Origin: Helicobacteraceae bacterium
Lineage (GTDB): Bacteria > Campylobacterota > Campylobacteria > Campylobacterales > Sulfurimonadaceae
Length of the DNA stretch: 55,129 nt
Direction: 5' to 3'
Assembly: GCA_026988515.1 (NCBI GenBank)
Contig: JALSLA010000041.1
Location: 1 to 55,129 of the forward strand
The notes below the pieces were generated by a model. That model was not told the origin of the DNA. It searched no databases and was given only the letters and a program-made list of their open reading frames with translations. Shown piece after piece: positions 46,594-55,129 of this stretch (positions within the stretch are counted from its first letter, which is position 1; the number at the start of each line of letters is the position of its first letter). Made by a program: the position numbers and the translations under genes.

Positions 46594-48657
46594 TTAAGGG
46601 GTGAAGTCTTCAAAAGGAATACCGCTGGTGTTGGTAGCGTGATCATGGCACTGATTGCATTGAGGATCGTAAGAATAAGCATGAGACGTGTCAATACCAG
46701 TGCCCACACTTCGTTTTGCAAATCCACTAAGTTTTAAAGAATTTCCATTGTAATTGTAAGGTTCAGGAAAACTTTCATAGCCCATGAGCCGTGATTTAGT
46801 AGAGCCATGTGGAATGGCAACATGGCATGTTACACAGGTAATATTGAGTGGTGGAAATCCAATAGATTCTGAATTTGCTTTAAACCAATGCGCAGTTACT
46901 TGTGTTAAGTCATGACAGTTGGCACAGAAGAGATCGCTATCGCCTCCGTTAAAAATATCTTGTGCAGTATAGAGTGTTCCATCTGGTTTAGCCGGCCAAT
47001 ATTTCTTTTCCCCTTTTAACATATACTTCATATTGGATCCGTGCGGTCCTCGCGGGTCACCGCCTACCTCGTTATCGGCACCGTGGCAGTCGGAGCAGTA
47101 CATAGCAGTAAAACCGGGATTGGTATTCCAAGGAGCACGTAGTTGATTAGCTTGCAGTGCCTTGGGATCACTTGAACCGGGTCTGCTGTTTAAGGGCATA
47201 ACTACAGGGTGAGCCGAACGGTTATTGGGGTTAAACTCCCACGCCTGATCGGTAGCATACATTCCTTCATTGACTAAAAAATGGCCCGAGACACCGTCTG
47301 GAGCATCACCGACACCCCAGTAAGAGTGACATTTAAGACAGATTTGGTACTCTTTATCTGCCGACTCAAGAGTGGAAAACGTAGTCGGCTGCGTGCCTCT
47401 CGGTGTCCAGTTAGGCTCAACACCCGTGACATTTCGTAAAACATCTGAAACGGCATTGGTCGGCGTGTTTGGGTACCATTGCCCTTTGGGTACGTGTGCA
47501 TTGCTACCGAGTCGGTGCGGGTTGTGGCAGTCCATGCATTCGGCATGCATAGAATCATCCCAGCTAAGTCCTTTGCTGCCGGCAGGAAAGCGTGTTGATC
47601 CGGTGCCGTAAAATACGTCAAGATCGGTATGTACACCATCGGTAATATTGACCGGGTGCGCGTAAGTACGATTGAGTACCGATTCAATATCGACGCCGCC
47701 AACCGTACCGGTACCGTGACATGATGAGAGGTTCGGTGACGAAGCAGCACCTTGAAAACAGGTCTGTTGCTCTACTTTTCGCAGCAGATAGTCGCCTTCA
47801 CCGTTGTGTGGTGTATGGCAGTTTACACAGAAAAAATCACTGGGGCTTTGCGAACCGTATTTGCTGACAACATTAGGGTCGGTGTAGGGCATTCCAATGA
47901 CTTGGTGGGTTGTCGGCCACGGATCACCGCCACTTTTGTCATGACATGACATACAGGTATCACGCATGTTTTTTGCATGATTGCCGCCGCTATCGACCCG
48001 TAAAAATGCTTTGTTCTCTTTATGAGGGTCGTGGCATGATGAGCATTCAACATACTTTTTTCCGCCATAATTAAATAACTTAATGGGTGCATCAGGTACA
48101 ACTTTGAGTTCTGAAGAGCGGCTGCCAATATCAAAGGTTTTGGTAATGGCGGGATTGTATTCGACACCTACCGGATGGTGAACGGAAAGATCGGTTCCAA
48201 TAAAACCTGCGGATGTTGCGGGAATTGTTCCGCTTCCATCTGTTCCGGTCATGGCAATTGTATTGCCGTTCATATATTCACGTCGCAGTTTAAAAACCGA
48301 ACCGACGGCAACCGTACCGTCATGGCAACTTAAACACTGCCGTGACAAAGCACCGGGAGTATCGTTGGCACTTCCAAGATCGGTAGGGGCATCGGGGTAA
48401 CCGAGCCGACGTAAATAGGCACTGTCATACATGGTGTAGTTTGATGTGGGCATACTTCGGTTCCAAAGCGGTTTTCCCAGCGGGCGTGACTGGTGGGGAA
48501 TGTGACAAAAGACACATATTTCGGTTTCAGCCTGAGCTTTAATGGTTCCTGCCGTATTACTAACAGAAAGGTTGTGCTTGGTATTAACGATGCCTGCACG
48601 AAGTTCTGTAATTGAAAATATTAAAAAAATACTACTGATAACACTAAAAAAATGCAT
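46594..48657 (-). CDS. Large multiheme cytochrome c, 11 CXXCH sites plus one CX12CH
   Basis: A 687-residue exported protein with a signal peptide (FFSVISSIFLIFSITELRAG). Canonical heme sites begin at Cys 48, 108, 205, 235, 277, 374, 440, 521, 578, 608 and 667. C300 and C313-H314 form an extra CX12CH pair that could be a twelfth, atypical heme. Many sites continue as CHxPH (doubled-CXXCH/cytochrome c3 style). Likely periplasmic or outer-surface electron carrier; no close named homologue is claimed. Ribosome-binding site GGAG 9 bases before the ATG. It lies downstream of the isomerase gene, with its own possible promoter in the 122-base gap. Confidence 0.85.
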   Translation of the reverse strand: MHFFSVISSIFLIFSITELRAGIVNTKHNLSVSNTAGTIKAQAETEICVFCHIPHQSRPLGKPLWNRSMPTSNYTMYDSAYLRRLGYPDAPTDLGSANDTPGALSRQCLSCHDGTVAVGSVFKLRREYMNGNTIAMTGTDGSGTIPATSAGFIGTDLSVHHPVGVEYNPAITKTFDIGSRSSELKVVPDAPIKLFNYGGKKYVECSSCHDPHKENKAFLRVDSGGNHAKNMRDTCMSCHDKSGGDPWPTTHQVIGMPYTDPNVVSKYGSQSPSDFFCVNCHTPHNGEGDYLLRKVEQQTCFQGAASSPNLSSCHGTGTVGGVDIESVLNRTYAHPVNITDGVHTDLDVFYGTGSTRFPAGSKGLSWDDSMHAECMDCHNPHRLGSNAHVPKGQWYPNTPTNAVSDVLRNVTGVEPNWTPRGTQPTTFSTLESADKEYQICLKCHSYWGVGDAPDGVSGHFLVNEGMYATDQAWEFNPNNRSAHPVVMPLNSRPGSSDPKALQANQLRAPWNTNPGFTAMYCSDCHGADNEVGGDPRGPHGSNMKYMLKGEKKYWPAKPDGTLYTAQDIFNGGDSDLFCANCHDLTQVTAHWFKANSESIGFPPLNITCVTCHVAIPHGSTKSRLMGYESFPEPYNYNGNSLKLSGFAKRSVGTGIDTSHAYSYDPQCNQCHDHATNTSGIPFEDFTP

Positions 48658-48771: not shown

Positions 48772-48794
48772 GAATCAAGCTAGTGGCTTGATTC
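48772..48794. terminator. Hairpin across the stop codon of the isomerase gene
   Basis: Perfect 9-bp arms GAATCAAGC / GCTTGATTC around a 5-base loop. It includes the TAG stop of the minus-strand isomerase gene. No U-run follows, so it may be a Rho-assisted end, an attenuator before the next cytochrome gene or an mRNA-stability hairpin. Confidence 0.5.
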
Positions 48795-49874
48795 AGAAGG
48801 AGGGGTGAGAATTGTAACATCAGCAGCGTCTCTGAGTTTTTGTACATGTGAGAGCGTATTTTTAACGATAATACTCTCTTGAAGATATTTTTTAATGAAA
48901 TTGCGTACCTCTTCATAGGGTGCGGTGCGTGGCGGTTCAATAGTATTGACTTTAATAATGTGGTAGCCAAAACGTGTGCGTACCGGTTCACTGATGTCAC
49001 CCTCTTTAAGACTAAAGGCAGCCTCTTCAAACGTTTTGGGCATGTAGCCTTTTTTAATAAAACCAAGACTGCCGTTTGTTTCATTGGCTTCGGCACTTTG
49101 GGAGTACTGTCGTGCCAATGCGCTAAACGATTCACCCTCTTTTAGTCGTGTCCGTATTTTTTGCGCTTTTTCAAATACAATCTTTTGATACTGTGGTGTA
49201 TTGTTATTGTCAAAGCTTAAGAGTATTTGGCTGACATTAACCATTTTACCCCTGCTAAAGTTCTGTTTGCCTTTGTCGTAAAAATCTCGAATCTGTTCCT
49301 CGGGAATATCCGGATCGTTCAGACCGTATTTTTTAAAATACTCCTGAAGATAAATTTTCTCTTTTAAAAAATCATCAAACTGTGATGTATTCATTCCCAT
49401 TGAGGCCATGTAGTGATTAAAAGCCTCTTTGCTACCGAATTTCTCTTCAATAGCCGTACGTTCTGCATCAATTTTTTGTTGAAGGTTTGCAACAGGTTCC
49501 TTAAGGCTTGCCTGACGTAAAACCTCGTCGTTAATCATTTTGTTCAAAACTTTCTGTTTTAAAAGATTTAACTGCGCCGAGTTAGCAGTTGATGTACTGA
49601 AACGTCTGTCTTTTTTAAGTTGCTTTTGTACCATAGCATTGAGCTTGTCTTCGTATAAGGCAATACCATTGACAGTAGCAACGACAGTTTTCTCTTTTAG
49701 TGAGCTATGGTCTGTTTTTGGTGTAGCAATGACCGGCTTGGTAATTGCTGCTGCCTCCTCCTCTTGTGTCTGTGTTTTGGTGTCACATCCAAGAAAAACG
49801 GTGCCGACTAGCAGTGTTGCGAGCATGTGTGATGCCCTGAGTCGCCTTTGGGATTTTGTGGTGCTGGTATTCAT
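48780..49874 (-). CDS. PpiC/SurA-type peptidyl-prolyl isomerase lipoprotein
   Basis: A 364-residue protein. The start is ATG 49874 rather than the upstream open frame, because AGGAG lies just before it and it gives a proper lipoprotein signal (ATLLVGTVFLGC, lipobox Cys30). After a linker comes a SurA-N-like helical region and a parvulin domain from about residue 220 (VNVSQILLSFDN, NGSLGFIKKGYMPKTFEEAA, VRTRFGYHIIKVN). It probably folds or chaperones exported proteins in the periplasm. It follows the subtilase gene by 13 bases. A parvulin isomerase next to a subtilase and an 8-heme cytochrome recalls the Geobacter omcZ locus. Confidence 0.85.
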   Translation of the reverse strand: MNTSTTKSQRRLRASHMLATLLVGTVFLGCDTKTQTQEEEAAAITKPVIATPKTDHSSLKEKTVVATVNGIALYEDKLNAMVQKQLKKDRRFSTSTANSAQLNLLKQKVLNKMINDEVLRQASLKEPVANLQQKIDAERTAIEEKFGSKEAFNHYMASMGMNTSQFDDFLKEKIYLQEYFKKYGLNDPDIPEEQIRDFYDKGKQNFSRGKMVNVSQILLSFDNNNTPQYQKIVFEKAQKIRTRLKEGESFSALARQYSQSAEANETNGSLGFIKKGYMPKTFEEAAFSLKEGDISEPVRTRFGYHIIKVNTIEPPRTAPYEEVRNFIKKYLQESIIVKNTLSHVQKLRDAADVTILTPPSESSH

Positions 49875-49887
49875 GGTGTATCTCCTG

Positions 49888-51408
49888 TTATAGTTTGGTA
49901 AGAGTAATTTGAGCAGTATTGCCACTATTGCCAAGAGGCATAAAGAAGAGTTTAAGCGCATCGGTAGATCCGTCTAAAGAGATCGTAATGGTTTCGTTGT
50001 CTTCTTTGAAAAAGTAGAATTTTGTAAGATCACCCCGAAAGCGGTTCTCGCTATATACCAAGATGACAACAGCAGTAAGTCCACTGTTTTTCATGCTAAT
50101 GCGATACGCCGAATCTTCAAGAAGAACCTCTTGAATACCGTTGAGCAAAGCACTCTCTTTTTTAAGATTTAAAACAATGTCTTCAGTAGTATTGAAAGCA
50201 TCGCGTATATTTAAAAGTCCGTAGCCGAACGTATCATCACGTCCCAAAATACCGAGATCGGTTACAGATGTTTGCAATGTTTTTCTTAGGTCGTCATTGT
50301 TAATAATACCGTCATTGTTACGATCATTGATACCCTTGGAAAGCAGCAGTGCGGCGGCACCACTGACAAATGCGGCTGATTGAGAGGTCCCGCTGAGTGC
50401 AGCATAACTGTTTTCTTGAGCAGTCGAGTAAATATTGAGACCCGGCGCTGCAATTTCCAATACGGGATCAATGGGTGAAAAAAAGCCTTTGGAATCATTC
50501 TGATCGGTTCCGGCAACGGCAACGACAGAGTCGTAAGCAGCAGGGAACTGTGCGGCACCGCTGTAGGTATTTCCGGCAGAAGCTACAATGAGAAGACCGG
50601 CTTGTTCCGCTGCATCACAGGTCGCCTGTAGCAGTGAAGAATCGACTCCGGCAATACTGATATTGGCAATATCCATGTTGTTCTCAACTGCCCATTGTAT
50701 GCCGGCAATAATATCGCTTAGCGACCCAAACGTACTGCCGTCAAGGACTTTGACGGCATAAATGGAGGCGTCCGGAGCCACACCGACCACGCCGATGTCG
50801 TTTGATTCTGCCGCAATAATACCGGCAATGTTGGTACCGTGCTGGTTATAACTGTCGTCAAAAGGGTCATCACTGCCGCGACCGTTAGTAATAAAATTAT
50901 AGCCGCCGCGGTAATTGGCATCAAGATCTTCGTGATTGTAATTAATACCGGTATCGAGTATGGCAATTTTTATGCCGCTACCGGTAATGTTTTTGTCATG
51001 TGCGACTTTAGCACCGATACGTTCAACACCCCATGAGTTGTCATATTCTCCATCAGATGCCAGGCTCTGTATTGAAAGTGGTTTGGTTGACGAGACCTTG
51101 GAAGTTGTGGAGGGGCTAGGGTCAATGGAGTGCACCGTTACATCATCTTCAACAAATGTAACCGATGGGTTTTTCAAGAGGATGGCAATACTCTCCTGAG
51201 GCATATCGGCAGCTATGGCAGGCAGTAGTGAATAGGTACGTTTAATGGTACCGCCAAGGCTTTGAATGAGTTTTTTTTCTGCTTTGTCAGGTTTTTGATG
51301 AAAGCCGACAATAACGGGCTTTCCTGCTATGGCAGTTGTTGCTAAAAGGGTGCAAAAAGTACATAGAAGTAGCATGCGTTTCAAGATTGTCTGTGTTGTT
51401 AACATCAT
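49888..51408 (-). CDS. Subtilisin-like (S8) serine protease, exported
   Basis: A 506-residue secreted protease. It has a signal peptide (LLLCTFCTLLATTAIAG), an I9-type propeptide (residues about 31-95) and a catalytic domain with intact triad: D152 in AILDTGINYNHEDLD, H190 in NQHGTNIAGIIA and S342 in LSGTSQSAAFVSG; the oxyanion Asn is in ASAGN. A beta-rich domain of about 110 residues ends the protein. It lies between an 8-heme cytochrome with a detachable-looking C-terminal half and an isomerase, so that cytochrome is a candidate substrate. It has its own putative promoter. Confidence 0.93.
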   Translation of the reverse strand: MMLTTQTILKRMLLLCTFCTLLATTAIAGKPVIVGFHQKPDKAEKKLIQSLGGTIKRTYSLLPAIAADMPQESIAILLKNPSVTFVEDDVTVHSIDPSPSTTSKVSSTKPLSIQSLASDGEYDNSWGVERIGAKVAHDKNITGSGIKIAILDTGINYNHEDLDANYRGGYNFITNGRGSDDPFDDSYNQHGTNIAGIIAAESNDIGVVGVAPDASIYAVKVLDGSTFGSLSDIIAGIQWAVENNMDIANISIAGVDSSLLQATCDAAEQAGLLIVASAGNTYSGAAQFPAAYDSVVAVAGTDQNDSKGFFSPIDPVLEIAAPGLNIYSTAQENSYAALSGTSQSAAFVSGAAALLLSKGINDRNNDGIINNDDLRKTLQTSVTDLGILGRDDTFGYGLLNIRDAFNTTEDIVLNLKKESALLNGIQEVLLEDSAYRISMKNSGLTAVVILVYSENRFRGDLTKFYFFKEDNETITISLDGSTDALKLFFMPLGNSGNTAQITLTKL

Positions 51409-51452
51409 CTGTTTTACCTTTAATAATAATCTTGTGTTTTTATAAACGTAAT

Positions 51453-51458
51453 ATTATA
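51453..51458 (-). promoter_or_regulatory. Candidate -10 box (TATAAT) for the subtilase-isomerase pair
   Basis: On the minus strand GCTATAATATTACG lies 44 bases before the protease start, so protease and isomerase could be transcribed apart from the upstream cytochrome. Confidence 0.45.
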
Positions 51459-51513
51459 GCAGAAAGTTTTTTGAAATGGATGTTGCAGTATGTAGTTTAG
51501 ATTTAGCTAGAGG

Positions 51514-51541
51514 GTTTGTGGCCTGAAAACAGGCCACAAAC
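51514..51541. terminator. Strong 12-bp hairpin downstream of the 8-heme cytochrome gene
   Basis: Perfect stem GTTTGTGGCCTG / CAGGCCACAAAC with an AAAA (minus: TTTT) loop. It lies 44 bases beyond the cytochrome stop and is GC-richer than its surroundings. There is no long U-run; it probably works with the A/T hairpin next to it or protects the 3' end of the message. Confidence 0.6.
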
Positions 51542-51558
51542 TGTAATGAATTGTTTTA

Positions 51559-51582
51559 AAAAAAGCTTCTGGGTGCTTTTTT
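51559..51582 (-). terminator. Rho-independent terminator of the 8-heme cytochrome gene
   Basis: A stem AAAAAAGC / GCTTTTTT with an 8-base loop followed on the minus strand by a T-tract, 3 bases after the cytochrome stop codon. Confidence 0.65.
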
Positions 51583-51584
51583 AA

Positions 51585-53330
51585 TTAATCACAATCCAAT
51601 AATTTGGTGAAACTTCCTGTATCACTGATAGCAATCAATGTGTCACAACCGCGAATAGGACACTCTTCGGCAACGATTTTAGTATCGCTCCAAGCGGTTA
51701 CTTTACATTCATCACCATTAACCGTGACTTTAGCATTGGCACCAACACCAAAGCCGCTACCGTCAAGGGTTACAATATCCCAATAATAGTCGCTGTCAAT
51801 AGCGTCTATTGTAGGATTCAGTGCTTCAGTACCTGCTGTTTCACACCCACCGTACATGCTGTCAGTTGCGGTGCCAAACAAAGTATTGAGAACCAGTTGA
51901 CCACATTTTTCAGGACATTCGGCAATAACCAATGTGTCTGTCCATGAAGTAATGCTACACTCTGTACCGTTTACAGTGACACTAGAGTTTATTTTGCTAC
52001 CGAAACCACGCCCTTCAACTGTAAGTGTATTACCACTCCAGAATTCAGCCCATTCAATGACTACATCAGGCACAACAACCAGGTAGACCGGAGCACTCTC
52101 TAAAGACTCTTTGACGGCTCGAACTGCATAGCTTCCCGGTTCAAGATTCGGAGGTAGTGTAACAACAGCTTGTGTCGCAGAGATAGACTCTGGGGTTAAT
52201 TCTGTTGTAATGCCGTCAGGATCCGTAAGAACAATAGTTGATTTGTACGTTTTAAGACCGGTAGCTGTTTTGGCATTATTTGTCAGACCGATTCCTGTAA
52301 ATGTGACTTTAGTCGCACTTCCAGCTGTAATTTTGCCAACGCTTAAGTCGTTGATCTGAGGAACGACCGGACCACCACTTGGAATAGGAGTAGAGGCTGC
52401 ACCTAAAATTCCTCCGTGACAACCTAGACAATCAGATTGTTTACCAATGTGTCCAAAGCCCGGTGCTTCACCGTATACTGTAATATTTCCATCTCCGTCG
52501 GTATCAGCTTGAATAGTGTGGATTGAGCTAATTCCATGGCAATCCTCACAACGACGAATTGCCCAGTCAGAACCGGTTTGATCATGACATACGGTACAAT
52601 CCAATACATCGCCGCCGACACCAACTTGGCCAATTCCCGTACTGTGGTGATTTACTGAGTTGGTTTTAACGTCAATACCCGAAACGCTTTCTACTCCGGC
52701 ATTGTGACAGAATGTACAAGCACCTTCACCGTTTGGTCCTTTGCCGCCACTGGTACGCGGTGTCACCATGGATGGTGTGCGTCCGGTCGGAATATAGTGA
52801 CCGTCGTTAGGGTTGTTGATAACAGAACCGTGACAGTGTTTACAGTTGAGTGCTTGTGCAGGTTCGGTTAAGTGGTGAACCGAAGCTTTCCCATCCATTT
52901 GTTTGTGACAGTTAAGGCAGTTTTTAAAGCTTTCATCTACAACAATCATACTGGTTGCCGGGTCAATTGCATGACAGTGTTGACAGTTATAGACTTCACC
53001 TGGGACTCCGTAAGGTGCTTGAGTGTTTGCACCCATTTTCATTTCTCTTACAACACGAAGGTGGTGACGGTCAGGAATAGCACCTGCTTTGACGGTAGGC
53101 GGTGTAAAAGTCCAACCAAGATTGGTACGATTAACATCGGTCAATCTGTCTGGTGCGTGACAATACCAGCAGTTTTCTCTTTGCAGATTATTAAATTGAG
53201 AATCGGGGATACCCAAATTCTGATTAACCGGCGGTGCCGGCACGTCGGCCCAACTGAGTGTAAAGCTTGTTAGCATAATCAGCAATACCGCTTTACATGT
53301 ATTCACTGATGTTTTTATATTTCCAAACAT
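51585..53330 (-). CDS. 8-heme cytochrome c with C-terminal IPT/TIG-like domains
   Basis: A 581-residue exported protein (signal cut probably after SWA, residue 28). Eight CXXCH motifs begin at Cys 54, 116, 138, 163, 205, 245, 261 and 301. A flexible Pro/Gly/Ser linker (about 310-325) leads into a heme-free half with Ig-like/IPT units: one at about 327-425, then two similar to each other at about 426-505 and 506-581 (VTVNGTECSITSWTDT versus VTVNGDECKVTAWSDT). The architecture, 8 hemes in about 280 residues plus a removable tail beside a subtilase, parallels Geobacter OmcZ. Ribosome-binding site AAGGAG before the ATG. Confidence 0.88.
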   Translation of the reverse strand: MFGNIKTSVNTCKAVLLIMLTSFTLSWADVPAPPVNQNLGIPDSQFNNLQRENCWYCHAPDRLTDVNRTNLGWTFTPPTVKAGAIPDRHHLRVVREMKMGANTQAPYGVPGEVYNCQHCHAIDPATSMIVVDESFKNCLNCHKQMDGKASVHHLTEPAQALNCKHCHGSVINNPNDGHYIPTGRTPSMVTPRTSGGKGPNGEGACTFCHNAGVESVSGIDVKTNSVNHHSTGIGQVGVGGDVLDCTVCHDQTGSDWAIRRCEDCHGISSIHTIQADTDGDGNITVYGEAPGFGHIGKQSDCLGCHGGILGAASTPIPSGGPVVPQINDLSVGKITAGSATKVTFTGIGLTNNAKTATGLKTYKSTIVLTDPDGITTELTPESISATQAVVTLPPNLEPGSYAVRAVKESLESAPVYLVVVPDVVIEWAEFWSGNTLTVEGRGFGSKINSSVTVNGTECSITSWTDTLVIAECPEKCGQLVLNTLFGTATDSMYGGCETAGTEALNPTIDAIDSDYYWDIVTLDGSGFGVGANAKVTVNGDECKVTAWSDTKIVAEECPIRGCDTLIAISDTGSFTKLLDCD

Positions 53331-54668: not shown

Positions 54669-55129
54669 ATGATTTTAAACGTTCAATACACATTCAAAAA
54701 AATTTGTTCGGTGAGTTTGCTTATGGCCGTTACGGTATTGCTGCCGACGGATTCTTCAGCACGTGGTATGAGTATTTTTGACGGAGCACCGACGGAAGAG
54801 CAGTGCCGTTTGTGTCATGGAGACAATTCGGGTGTTCCCAATCCTGCAGCAGGTGCTGTCAATGCTGACCGTCACCACTCGCGCGTCGGAAAACCGATTG
54901 AAGGACTTTACTACGGTTGGCACGAAACAGTAGCACCGGGTGATATATCACGAGGCGAGTATCATTGTTTAACATGTCATACGACAGAATATTCTGAAGA
55001 GACAGATTCGGAAACGATTGTATTGACCAATGACTGCTTGCAGTGTCACCCTGCTTGGTCGGTAACGGGGCGCCCGATGCGCGGCAGTAACGTTCACCAT
55101 GCGACACGCTCCTTTCAGCAGCGACAGTG
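54669..55129 (+). CDS. Multiheme cytochrome c, N-terminal part (runs off the window)
   Basis: An open frame of 153 codons to the window end, starting at ATG 54669 with AAGGAG 7 bases upstream. The first about 34 residues form a signal peptide (ICSVSLLMAVTVLLPTDSSA). Three heme c sites are visible: CRLCH, CLTCH and CLQCH, with further His residues (DRHHSR, YGWHET) able to serve as distal ligands. It is likely periplasmic or outer-surface and related to the other cytochromes here. The heme total is unknown because the 3' end is missing. Confidence 0.85.
   Translation, partial: MILNVQYTFKKICSVSLLMAVTVLLPTDSSARGMSIFDGAPTEEQCRLCHGDNSGVPNPAAGAVNADRHHSRVGKPIEGLYYGWHETVAPGDISRGEYHCLTCHTTEYSEETDSETIVLTNDCLQCHPAWSVTGRPMRGSNVHHATRSFQQRQ

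What the first reader, a model, noticed from the sequence alone, without database searches (positions are those of the whole stretch)
48780..53330. Candidate OmcZ-like extracellular cytochrome filament locus in a Campylobacterota genome
Seen: an 8-heme cytochrome with all hemes in residues 54-305, a Pro/Gly/Ser linker and a heme-free beta-rich C-terminal half; next an exported subtilase with intact triad; next a parvulin isomerase lipoprotein; next an 11-12-heme cytochrome. Known (from memory): in Geobacter sulfurreducens omcZ encodes an 8-heme precursor whose C-terminal half is cut off by the neighbouring subtilisin-like protease OzpA, after which OmcZ forms conductive filaments; an isomerase gene lies beside them. 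Inference: the same trio has been recruited here, with IPT/TIG units as the removable part. OmcZ has one CX14CH heme while this protein has eight CXXCH, so it is at best a divergent relative.
Basis: partly seen in the sequence, partly recalled or inferred. Interest (0 to 1): 0.87.

Follow-up and report, generated by a model that had tools for sequence, protein, structure and literature searches.

The report
OmcZ nanowire operon in Campylobacterota
This vent-type bacterium, from a phylum in which no OmcZ nanowires were found reported, carries the same three-gene set that Geobacter uses to make electricity-conducting protein filaments, together with a half-sized copy of the filament subunit that turns up in almost every genome that has the set.

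Summary
Window 51585-53330(-) is a real OmcZ homolog. It matches the Geobacter OmcZ filament structure 8D9M at E=1e-58 across the signal peptide, all eight hemes and the C-terminal Ig/TIG part. All 16 heme-ligand histidines align with Geobacter. The missing CX14CH motif is a Geobacter peculiarity, since all 12 relatives compared have CXXCH there. The next genes, an S8 protease and a PpiC-type isomerase, repeat the published Geobacter operon order (GSU2076-2075-2074). The same trio sits in five unrelated genomic settings. The system is rare in sampled Campylobacterota. The genome also encodes a CymA/NapC-type quinol oxidase and an OmcE-like cytochrome cluster, so an outward electron route is plausible.

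New here: (1) a stand-alone tetraheme protein homologous to hemes 1-4 of OmcZ, at the window edge. It was found in six of seven OmcZ-positive genomes, is linked to omcZ in three lineages, and was absent from all OmcZ-negative genomes sampled outside the window's genus. (2) In three relatives, precursor and protease share a genome-specific tail.

Filament formation, cleavage and conductivity are inferred. AlphaFold gave no usable heme domain. The operon is a new member of a known kind; with its half-subunit, a new variant.

The parts
51585..53330 (-). omcZ homolog, 581 aa octaheme precursor (signal peptide 1-28, heme domain 29-310, linker about 309-324, C-terminal TIG/Ig units 325-581)
   Evidence: phmmer to 8d9m_A E=1.1e-58 and 7lq5_A 3e-36; profile E=4.9e-85; 8 CXXCH; 8 distal His invariant in 13/13
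52401..53246 (-). mature heme-bearing part (residues 29-310), expected filament subunit
   Evidence: one-to-one alignment of eight hemes with Geobacter OmcZ; about 30.5 kDa protein, 35 kDa with hemes
51588..52358 (-). C-terminal TIG/Ig units (residues 325-581), expected to be removed by the protease
   Evidence: PF01833; C-part alone matches Geobacter C-part E=3e-16; AF2 confident here, Foldseek gives IPT domains
51514..51541 (-). RNA hairpin (12 bp stem, 4-nt loop) between omcZ and the protease gene
   Evidence: fold z=-5.2; hairpins after omcZ also in L031, L032 and L011 with unrelated sequence
49888..51408 (-). OzpA-type S8 subtilase with propeptide and signal peptide
   Evidence: PF00082 E=1.5e-54; 49-54% identical to the trio proteases of L004 and G249, triad and oxyanion Asn conserved in 5/5
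48780..49961 (-). PpiC/SurA-type prolyl isomerase lipoprotein (probable start 49874)
   Evidence: PF13616 E=3e-25; 36-41% to trio isomerases
46594..48657 (-). 11 CXXCH + 1 CX12CH cytochrome; its first 240 residues are OmcE-like
   Evidence: 7tfs_A (OmcE) E=1.5e-25; paralog inside a cytochrome/NHL/isomerase cluster on contig C19
53815..54549 (+). response regulator (receiver + C-terminal DNA-binding), divergent from omcZ; conserved in the genus
   Evidence: PF00072 and PF00486; same position in L003/L034 and L041
54669..55129 (+). tetraheme protein homologous to hemes 1-4 of OmcZ, cut by the contig end (complete as L003 6695-7207 -)
   Evidence: hhalign to OmcZ N-half 99.5%, E=3.9e-23; co-occurs with OmcZ

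Best explanation
This is a functional OmcZ nanowire operon. The octaheme precursor is exported. The lipoprotein isomerase helps fold its proline-rich chain. The secreted subtilase cuts in the short linker after heme 8 (around residues 309-324) and removes the TIG units that block polymerisation. The roughly 30 kDa heme part then polymerises outside the cell into an OmcZ-type heme filament that carries respiratory electrons (from H2 or other donors, via menaquinol, a NapC/CymA-like oxidase and outer-membrane cytochromes) to solid or distant acceptors. SHOWN by sequence: homology, conserved heme ligands, intact protease, gene order and its recurrence. INFERRED from Geobacter: export route, cleavage site, polymerisation, conductivity and acceptor.
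For: OmcZ homology over signal peptide, mature N-terminus (VPAPPVNQNLGI vs VPPPPVNQFLGI), eight hemes and Ig tail. Sixteen invariant His ligands. S8 and PPIase adjacent in the same order in five settings: window, L004, L011/L012, L031, L032. Geobacter operon omcZ-subtilisin-isomerase, with the isomerase required on electrodes (PMC5585712, PMC2680965). Protease needed for filament formation (review PMC12307469), and the cluster reported sufficient for assembly in a heterologous host (PMC11208441). Same genome has a NapC-type protein (PF03264 E=3e-33) and multiheme strings on C40, and an OmcE-like/NHL/isomerase/608-aa candidate-porin cluster on C19. [NiFe] hydrogenase in the window.
Against: No experiment. 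The interface loop (CX14CH) of Geobacter OmcZ is absent, so subunit contacts must differ. AF2 of the heme part is unusable. No direct sequence comparison with Geobacter OzpA was possible.
Confidence: 0.8

Rival explanations
1. The octaheme protein is processed and exported but works as a soluble or surface-bound extracellular reductase or shuttle, not as a polymer.
For: The Geobacter heme-1 loop that forms part of the subunit interface is missing (PMC9473688). A filament cannot be read from sequence.
Against: The whole processing cassette is retained, whose known purpose is to release a polymerising form (PMC12307469). OmcZs of Borgs also vary in this motif (PMC11208441).
Confidence: 0.13
2. 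A generic secreted octaheme cytochrome beside an unrelated subtilase; neighbours by chance.
For: Subtilases and parvulins are common families.
Against: Full-length OmcZ match. The trio recurs in identical order in five unrelated surroundings, and Geobacter has the same order (PMC5585712).
Confidence: 0.02
3. The contig is a mis-binned or contaminating fragment, so the phylum assignment is wrong.
For: Genome is a 97-contig draft.
Against: Same-genus genome G417 carries the locus. Two further genera of another family in the order have it, one on a contig with flagellar (flhA-like) and clpB genes. GC of omcZ (0.450) and protease (0.448) lies within the range of neighbouring genes (0.388-0.456).
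Confidence: 0.03

Closest known systems
Geobacter sulfurreducens OmcZ-OzpA-prolyl isomerase operon (GSU2076-2075-2074)
   Same: Gene order, octaheme precursor with C-terminal Ig domains, all heme ligands, exported subtilase, isomerase
   Different: Second heme motif CXXCH instead of CX14CH; about 22 more residues between hemes 1 and 2; third TIG unit; divergent response regulator and half-OmcZ tetraheme; different phylum; 34% identity
Methanoperedens / Borg OmcZ clusters (PMC11208441)
   Same: OmcZ + protease + isomerase outside Geobacter; some also lack the CX14CH motif
   Different: Archaea and their extrachromosomal elements; additional beta domains there; no half-OmcZ partner mentioned in the section read
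ANME-2 OmcZ homologs (PMC9012536)
   Same: Full-length similarity including C-terminal region; inferred horizontal transfer
   Different: In ANME-2a/2b next to giant S-layer multiheme proteins
Geobacter OmcE filament (7TFS)
   Same: N-terminal 240 residues of the 687-aa cytochrome, and a 252-aa protein on contig C19, are homologous to it
   Different: The 687-aa protein carries seven or eight further hemes, so it is not a plain OmcE subunit

Membership tests
OmcZ | Full-length homology to OmcZ, heme part and C-terminal Ig part | tested here: met
   8d9m_A E=1.1e-58, residues 15-486; C-part alone E=3e-16, hemes masked E=5e-36
OmcZ | Eight bis-His c-type hemes | tested here: met
   8 CXXCH and 8 distal His conserved 13/13 including Geobacter
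OmcZ | CX14CH heme motif in the interface loop | tested here: not met
   CXXCH in all 12 non-Geobacter homologs; not a defining feature, as some Borg OmcZs lack it (PMC11208441)
OmcZ | Operon with subtilisin-like protease and prolyl isomerase | tested here: met
   PMC5585712; PMC2680965
OmcZ | Heme arrangement and fold of the OmcZ subunit | tested here: inconclusive
   AF2 heme part pLDDT below 50; Foldseek matched only Ig/IPT domains
OmcZ | Forms extracellular filaments after cleavage | not testable with these tools
   needs protein or cells
OzpA | Exported S8 subtilase with intact triad next to omcZ | tested here: met
OzpA | Sequence orthology to GSU2075 | not tested
OzpA | Cleaves OmcZ after the heme part (FGNSS in Geobacter) | not testable with these tools
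   aligned linker is GAASTPIPSGG
OmcE (for 46594-48657) | Small tetraheme filament subunit | tested here: not met
   OmcE-like only over residues 12-240 of 687; 11-12 hemes

The most novel reading that the evidence does not exclude
OmcZ nanowires have a dedicated half-subunit. The conserved tetraheme protein (hemes 1-4 of OmcZ with both HH ligand pairs, often with a Gly/Arg-rich tail) carries only one of the two stacking faces, so it starts, caps or plugs OmcZ filaments into the cell surface or matrix, controlling their length and attachment.
Probability: 0.3. Interest if true: 0.86.

Novelty: new variant of a known kind. Interest (0 to 1): 0.68.

Why it matters
It puts long-range cytochrome nanowires of the most conductive reported type (OmcZ) into Campylobacterota, dominant chemolithotrophs of hydrothermal vents. 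No paper found in the open library reports OmcZ in this phylum. It shows that the omcZ-protease-isomerase cassette keeps its order while being rare and scattered, as expected of a horizontally moving functional unit. The half-OmcZ partner and the matched precursor/protease tails offer concrete entry points to two open questions: how OmcZ filaments start, end or attach, and how the protease finds its substrate.

Tried and rejected
AlphaFold of the OmcZ heme part (mean pLDDT 53.5, heme part below 50) and of the tetraheme (49.5) gave no usable models. Foldseek matched only the Ig/TIG part. OmcZ was not found on plasmids, and neither OmcZ nor the tetraheme in viral contigs. The multicopper oxidase/copper ATPase genes next to the tetraheme in sister genomes were considered as part of the system and rejected as core: not detected in G000, G249 and G712. 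The idea that eight CXXCH argue against OmcZ was rejected. A phmmer search of the single tetraheme and an hmmsearch of its profile against PDB did not single out OmcZ; homology rests on profile-profile comparison, blastp to closer OmcZs and the hits of its profile to OmcZ N-halves in G788. Promoter and terminator scans were at chance level. No Rfam hit.

Full report
WHAT IS THERE. Reading in gene order: the 581-aa octaheme cytochrome (51585-53330), an S8 subtilase (49888-51408), a PpiC/SurA-type prolyl isomerase lipoprotein (48780-49961, likely start 49874, 13 bases after the protease stop), and a 687-aa cytochrome (46594-48657). Pfam gives TIG, Peptidase_S8 (E=1.5e-54) and Rotamase_3 (E=3e-25) as expected. 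The protease keeps its Asp, His, Ser and oxyanion Asn motifs in all five trio members aligned. The last cytochrome has 11 CXXCH plus a CX12CH motif that is conserved in its paralog.

IS IT OmcZ? Yes, by sequence. A single-sequence search of the PDB returns the two Geobacter OmcZ filament entries first, 8d9m (E=1.1e-58, residues 15-486) and 7lq5 (E=3e-36). A profile of eleven relatives returns only those two at E<=0.001 (4.9e-85 and 1.8e-51). This is not a heme-motif artefact. With every CXXCH masked the match is still E=5e-36. The heme-free C-terminal part alone matches at E=3e-16. Three hundred shuffles that keep all heme C/C/H positions reach at most 41 bits against 214 observed. The mature N-terminus is VPAPPVNQNLGI here and VPPPPVNQFLGI in Geobacter. 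All eight heme-motif histidines and eight further histidines (89, 90, 152, 153, 228, 229, 271, 294) are invariant in 13 of 13 sequences including Geobacter, which accounts for eight bis-His hemes. The motif that is CX14CH in Geobacter is CXXCH in all twelve other homologs. In Geobacter that loop lies at the subunit interface (PMC9473688), and a subset of Borg OmcZs also lack it (PMC11208441).

THE CASSETTE. In Geobacter, omcZ is in an operon with the subtilisin gene GSU2075 (PMC2680965) and the peptidyl-prolyl isomerase GSU2074, disruption of which impairs electrode growth (PMC5585712). The same order, omcZ - S8 - isomerase on one strand, occurs in the window, in L004 (record titled Candidatus Polarisedimenticolaceae, Acidobacteriota in NCBI), in G249 (L011/L012, three tandem omcZ copies), in G597 (L031) and in G615 (L032), each with different outer neighbours where the contig continues. 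In L004 a tetraheme gene lies between omcZ and the protease. Precedents outside Geobacter exist: ANME-2 (PMC9012536), Methanoperedens and Borgs (PMC11208441, PMC10874420). The eLife structure paper states that omcZ/ozpA operons are widespread (PMC9473688). So the kind is known. In the open library I found no report of it in Campylobacterota; subscription papers, including Gu et al. 2023, could not be read.

HOW RARE. With the window protein as query at E<=1e-10, OmcZ was found in 2 of 397 genomes of the phylum sample (the window's genome and G249), 2 of 228 of the family (the window's genome and G417) and 4 of 399 of the order (adding G597 and G615). The samples overlap, and very divergent OmcZs would be missed. 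In the class of G712 it was found in 2 of 185 (G712 and the more divergent G788). L004 OmcZ is 53% identical to the window's protein, against 34% for Geobacter. A 13-row tree groups the Campylobacterota sequences with modest support (64/87) and cannot place Geobacter's long branch. This pattern fits horizontal spread, which I infer rather than show. GC of omcZ and protease (0.45) lies within the range of neighbouring genes.

ELECTRON SUPPLY. On contig C40 the same genome has a NapC/NrfH/CymA-type protein (PF03264 E=3e-33) followed by 3-, 11-, 7- and 8-heme proteins. On C19 it has 11-, 8- and 4-heme proteins, an NHL protein, a second parvulin isomerase, a 608-aa protein without Pfam match (a candidate porin), another NHL protein and a 10-CXXCH paralog of the window's 687-aa cytochrome. 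The 4-heme protein there is homologous to the Geobacter OmcE filament 7TFS (E=8e-20), and so are residues 12-240 of the window's 687-aa cytochrome (E=1.5e-25) (7TFS = OmcE, PMC12954529). A [NiFe] hydrogenase with a cytochrome b lies in the window. An outward electron path from hydrogen or menaquinol is therefore plausible. Porin and conduit roles are inferred.

A HALF-OmcZ PARTNER. At the window edge, divergent from omcZ and behind a response regulator, begins a cytochrome that is complete in L003 (170 aa, four CXXCH). Its profile matches the first half of OmcZ (99.5%, E=3.9e-23) far better than the second half (E=4e-7) or tetraheme stretches of an unrelated cytochrome (best E=6e-5). It keeps both HH pairs, exactly the four distal ligands needed for four hemes. 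Its profile also finds the N-halves of G788's OmcZs (E 1e-17 to 1e-19). It is present as a stand-alone gene in G000, G417, G249, G597, G615 and G712, all OmcZ-positive, and in two incomplete genomes of the window's genus, G416 and G418, in which OmcZ was not found and whose tetraheme contigs end just beyond this gene or its regulator. In 328 phylum genomes it occurs only in the two OmcZ-positive ones. In the class of G712 (185 genomes) only G712 has it stand-alone; G788 shows only its OmcZ halves. It is linked to omcZ three ways: divergently in the window's genus, between omcZ and the protease in L004, and as a fused pair directly upstream of the second omcZ of G615. Several copies end in a Gly/Arg-rich tail. 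[quoted passage not shown] A starter, cap or docking adaptor is my leading guess; a separate shuttle is the rival.

MATCHED TAILS AND HAIRPINS. In G249, G597 and G615 the precursor and the protease end in the same kind of about 60-residue repeats. Tails agree 48-62% between OmcZ and protease of one genome but only 27-42% between genomes, even between OmcZ orthologs. In G615 the tail was found nowhere else in the genome; in G249 one further secreted repeat protein has it. A shared docking or localisation device that is discarded with the pro-part would explain this; concerted recombination is the rival. After omcZ there is a strong RNA hairpin in the window (z=-5.2), L031 (z=-6.3), L032 (z=-3.9) and after the first omcZ of G249 (z=-5.0), with unrelated sequences. 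This is consistent with more cytochrome than protease being made; the function is inferred.

LIMITS. Geobacter OzpA could not be compared directly. All hosts are drafts or MAGs. Cleavage, filament formation and conductivity are untested.

VERDICT. OmcZ operon: supported at about 0.8 for function and higher for homology, a new member of a known kind in an unexpected phylum. Together with the half-OmcZ partner it is a new variant of that kind.

Noticed in passing
window 54669-55129 (+); L003 6695-7207 (-); L004 11593-12075 (+): Stand-alone tetraheme protein homologous to the first half of OmcZ, co-occurring with OmcZ, often with a Gly/Arg-rich C-terminal tail.
   Followed up: yes
L033 9104-9994 (+); L035 6841-7722 (-): Fused double version of the half-OmcZ tetraheme (eight hemes) in G615, directly upstream of a second omcZ that lacks a protease, and in G597.
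   Followed up: partly
L011 13769-20000, L012 1-2153, L031, L032, L033: OmcZ precursors and the adjacent protease share genome-specific C-terminal repeat tails (48-62% within a genome, 27-42% between genomes) with no informative Pfam family.
   Followed up: partly
L074 5617-6492 (-) (G249 contig C45): Secreted protein made of three of the same tail repeats plus Gly-rich ends, apart from the OmcZ locus.
   Followed up: no
window 51514-51541 (-): Stable RNA hairpin after omcZ before the protease gene; hairpins of unrelated sequence at the same place in three other omcZ loci.
   Followed up: partly
L057 5847-16187 (contig C19 of the same genome): Cluster of OmcE-like tetraheme, 11- and 8-heme cytochromes, two NHL proteins, parvulin isomerase, 608-aa candidate porin and a paralog of the window's 687-aa cytochrome: looks like a second nanowire or conduit system.
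   Followed up: partly
window 46594-48657 (-): Cytochrome with an OmcE-like N-terminal module and a conserved non-canonical CX12CH motif.
   Followed up: partly
L034 4256-10375; L041; L042: In sister genomes the response regulator and tetraheme are followed by multicopper oxidase, an outer-membrane-like protein and (L034, L041) a copper P-type ATPase; the oxidase was not detected in the window's genome.
   Followed up: partly
L050, L051, L052 (G788): A more divergent OmcZ group (36-39% identity), three loci in one genome, without adjacent protease; one is next to a partial OmcZ and a 6-heme protein.
   Followed up: no
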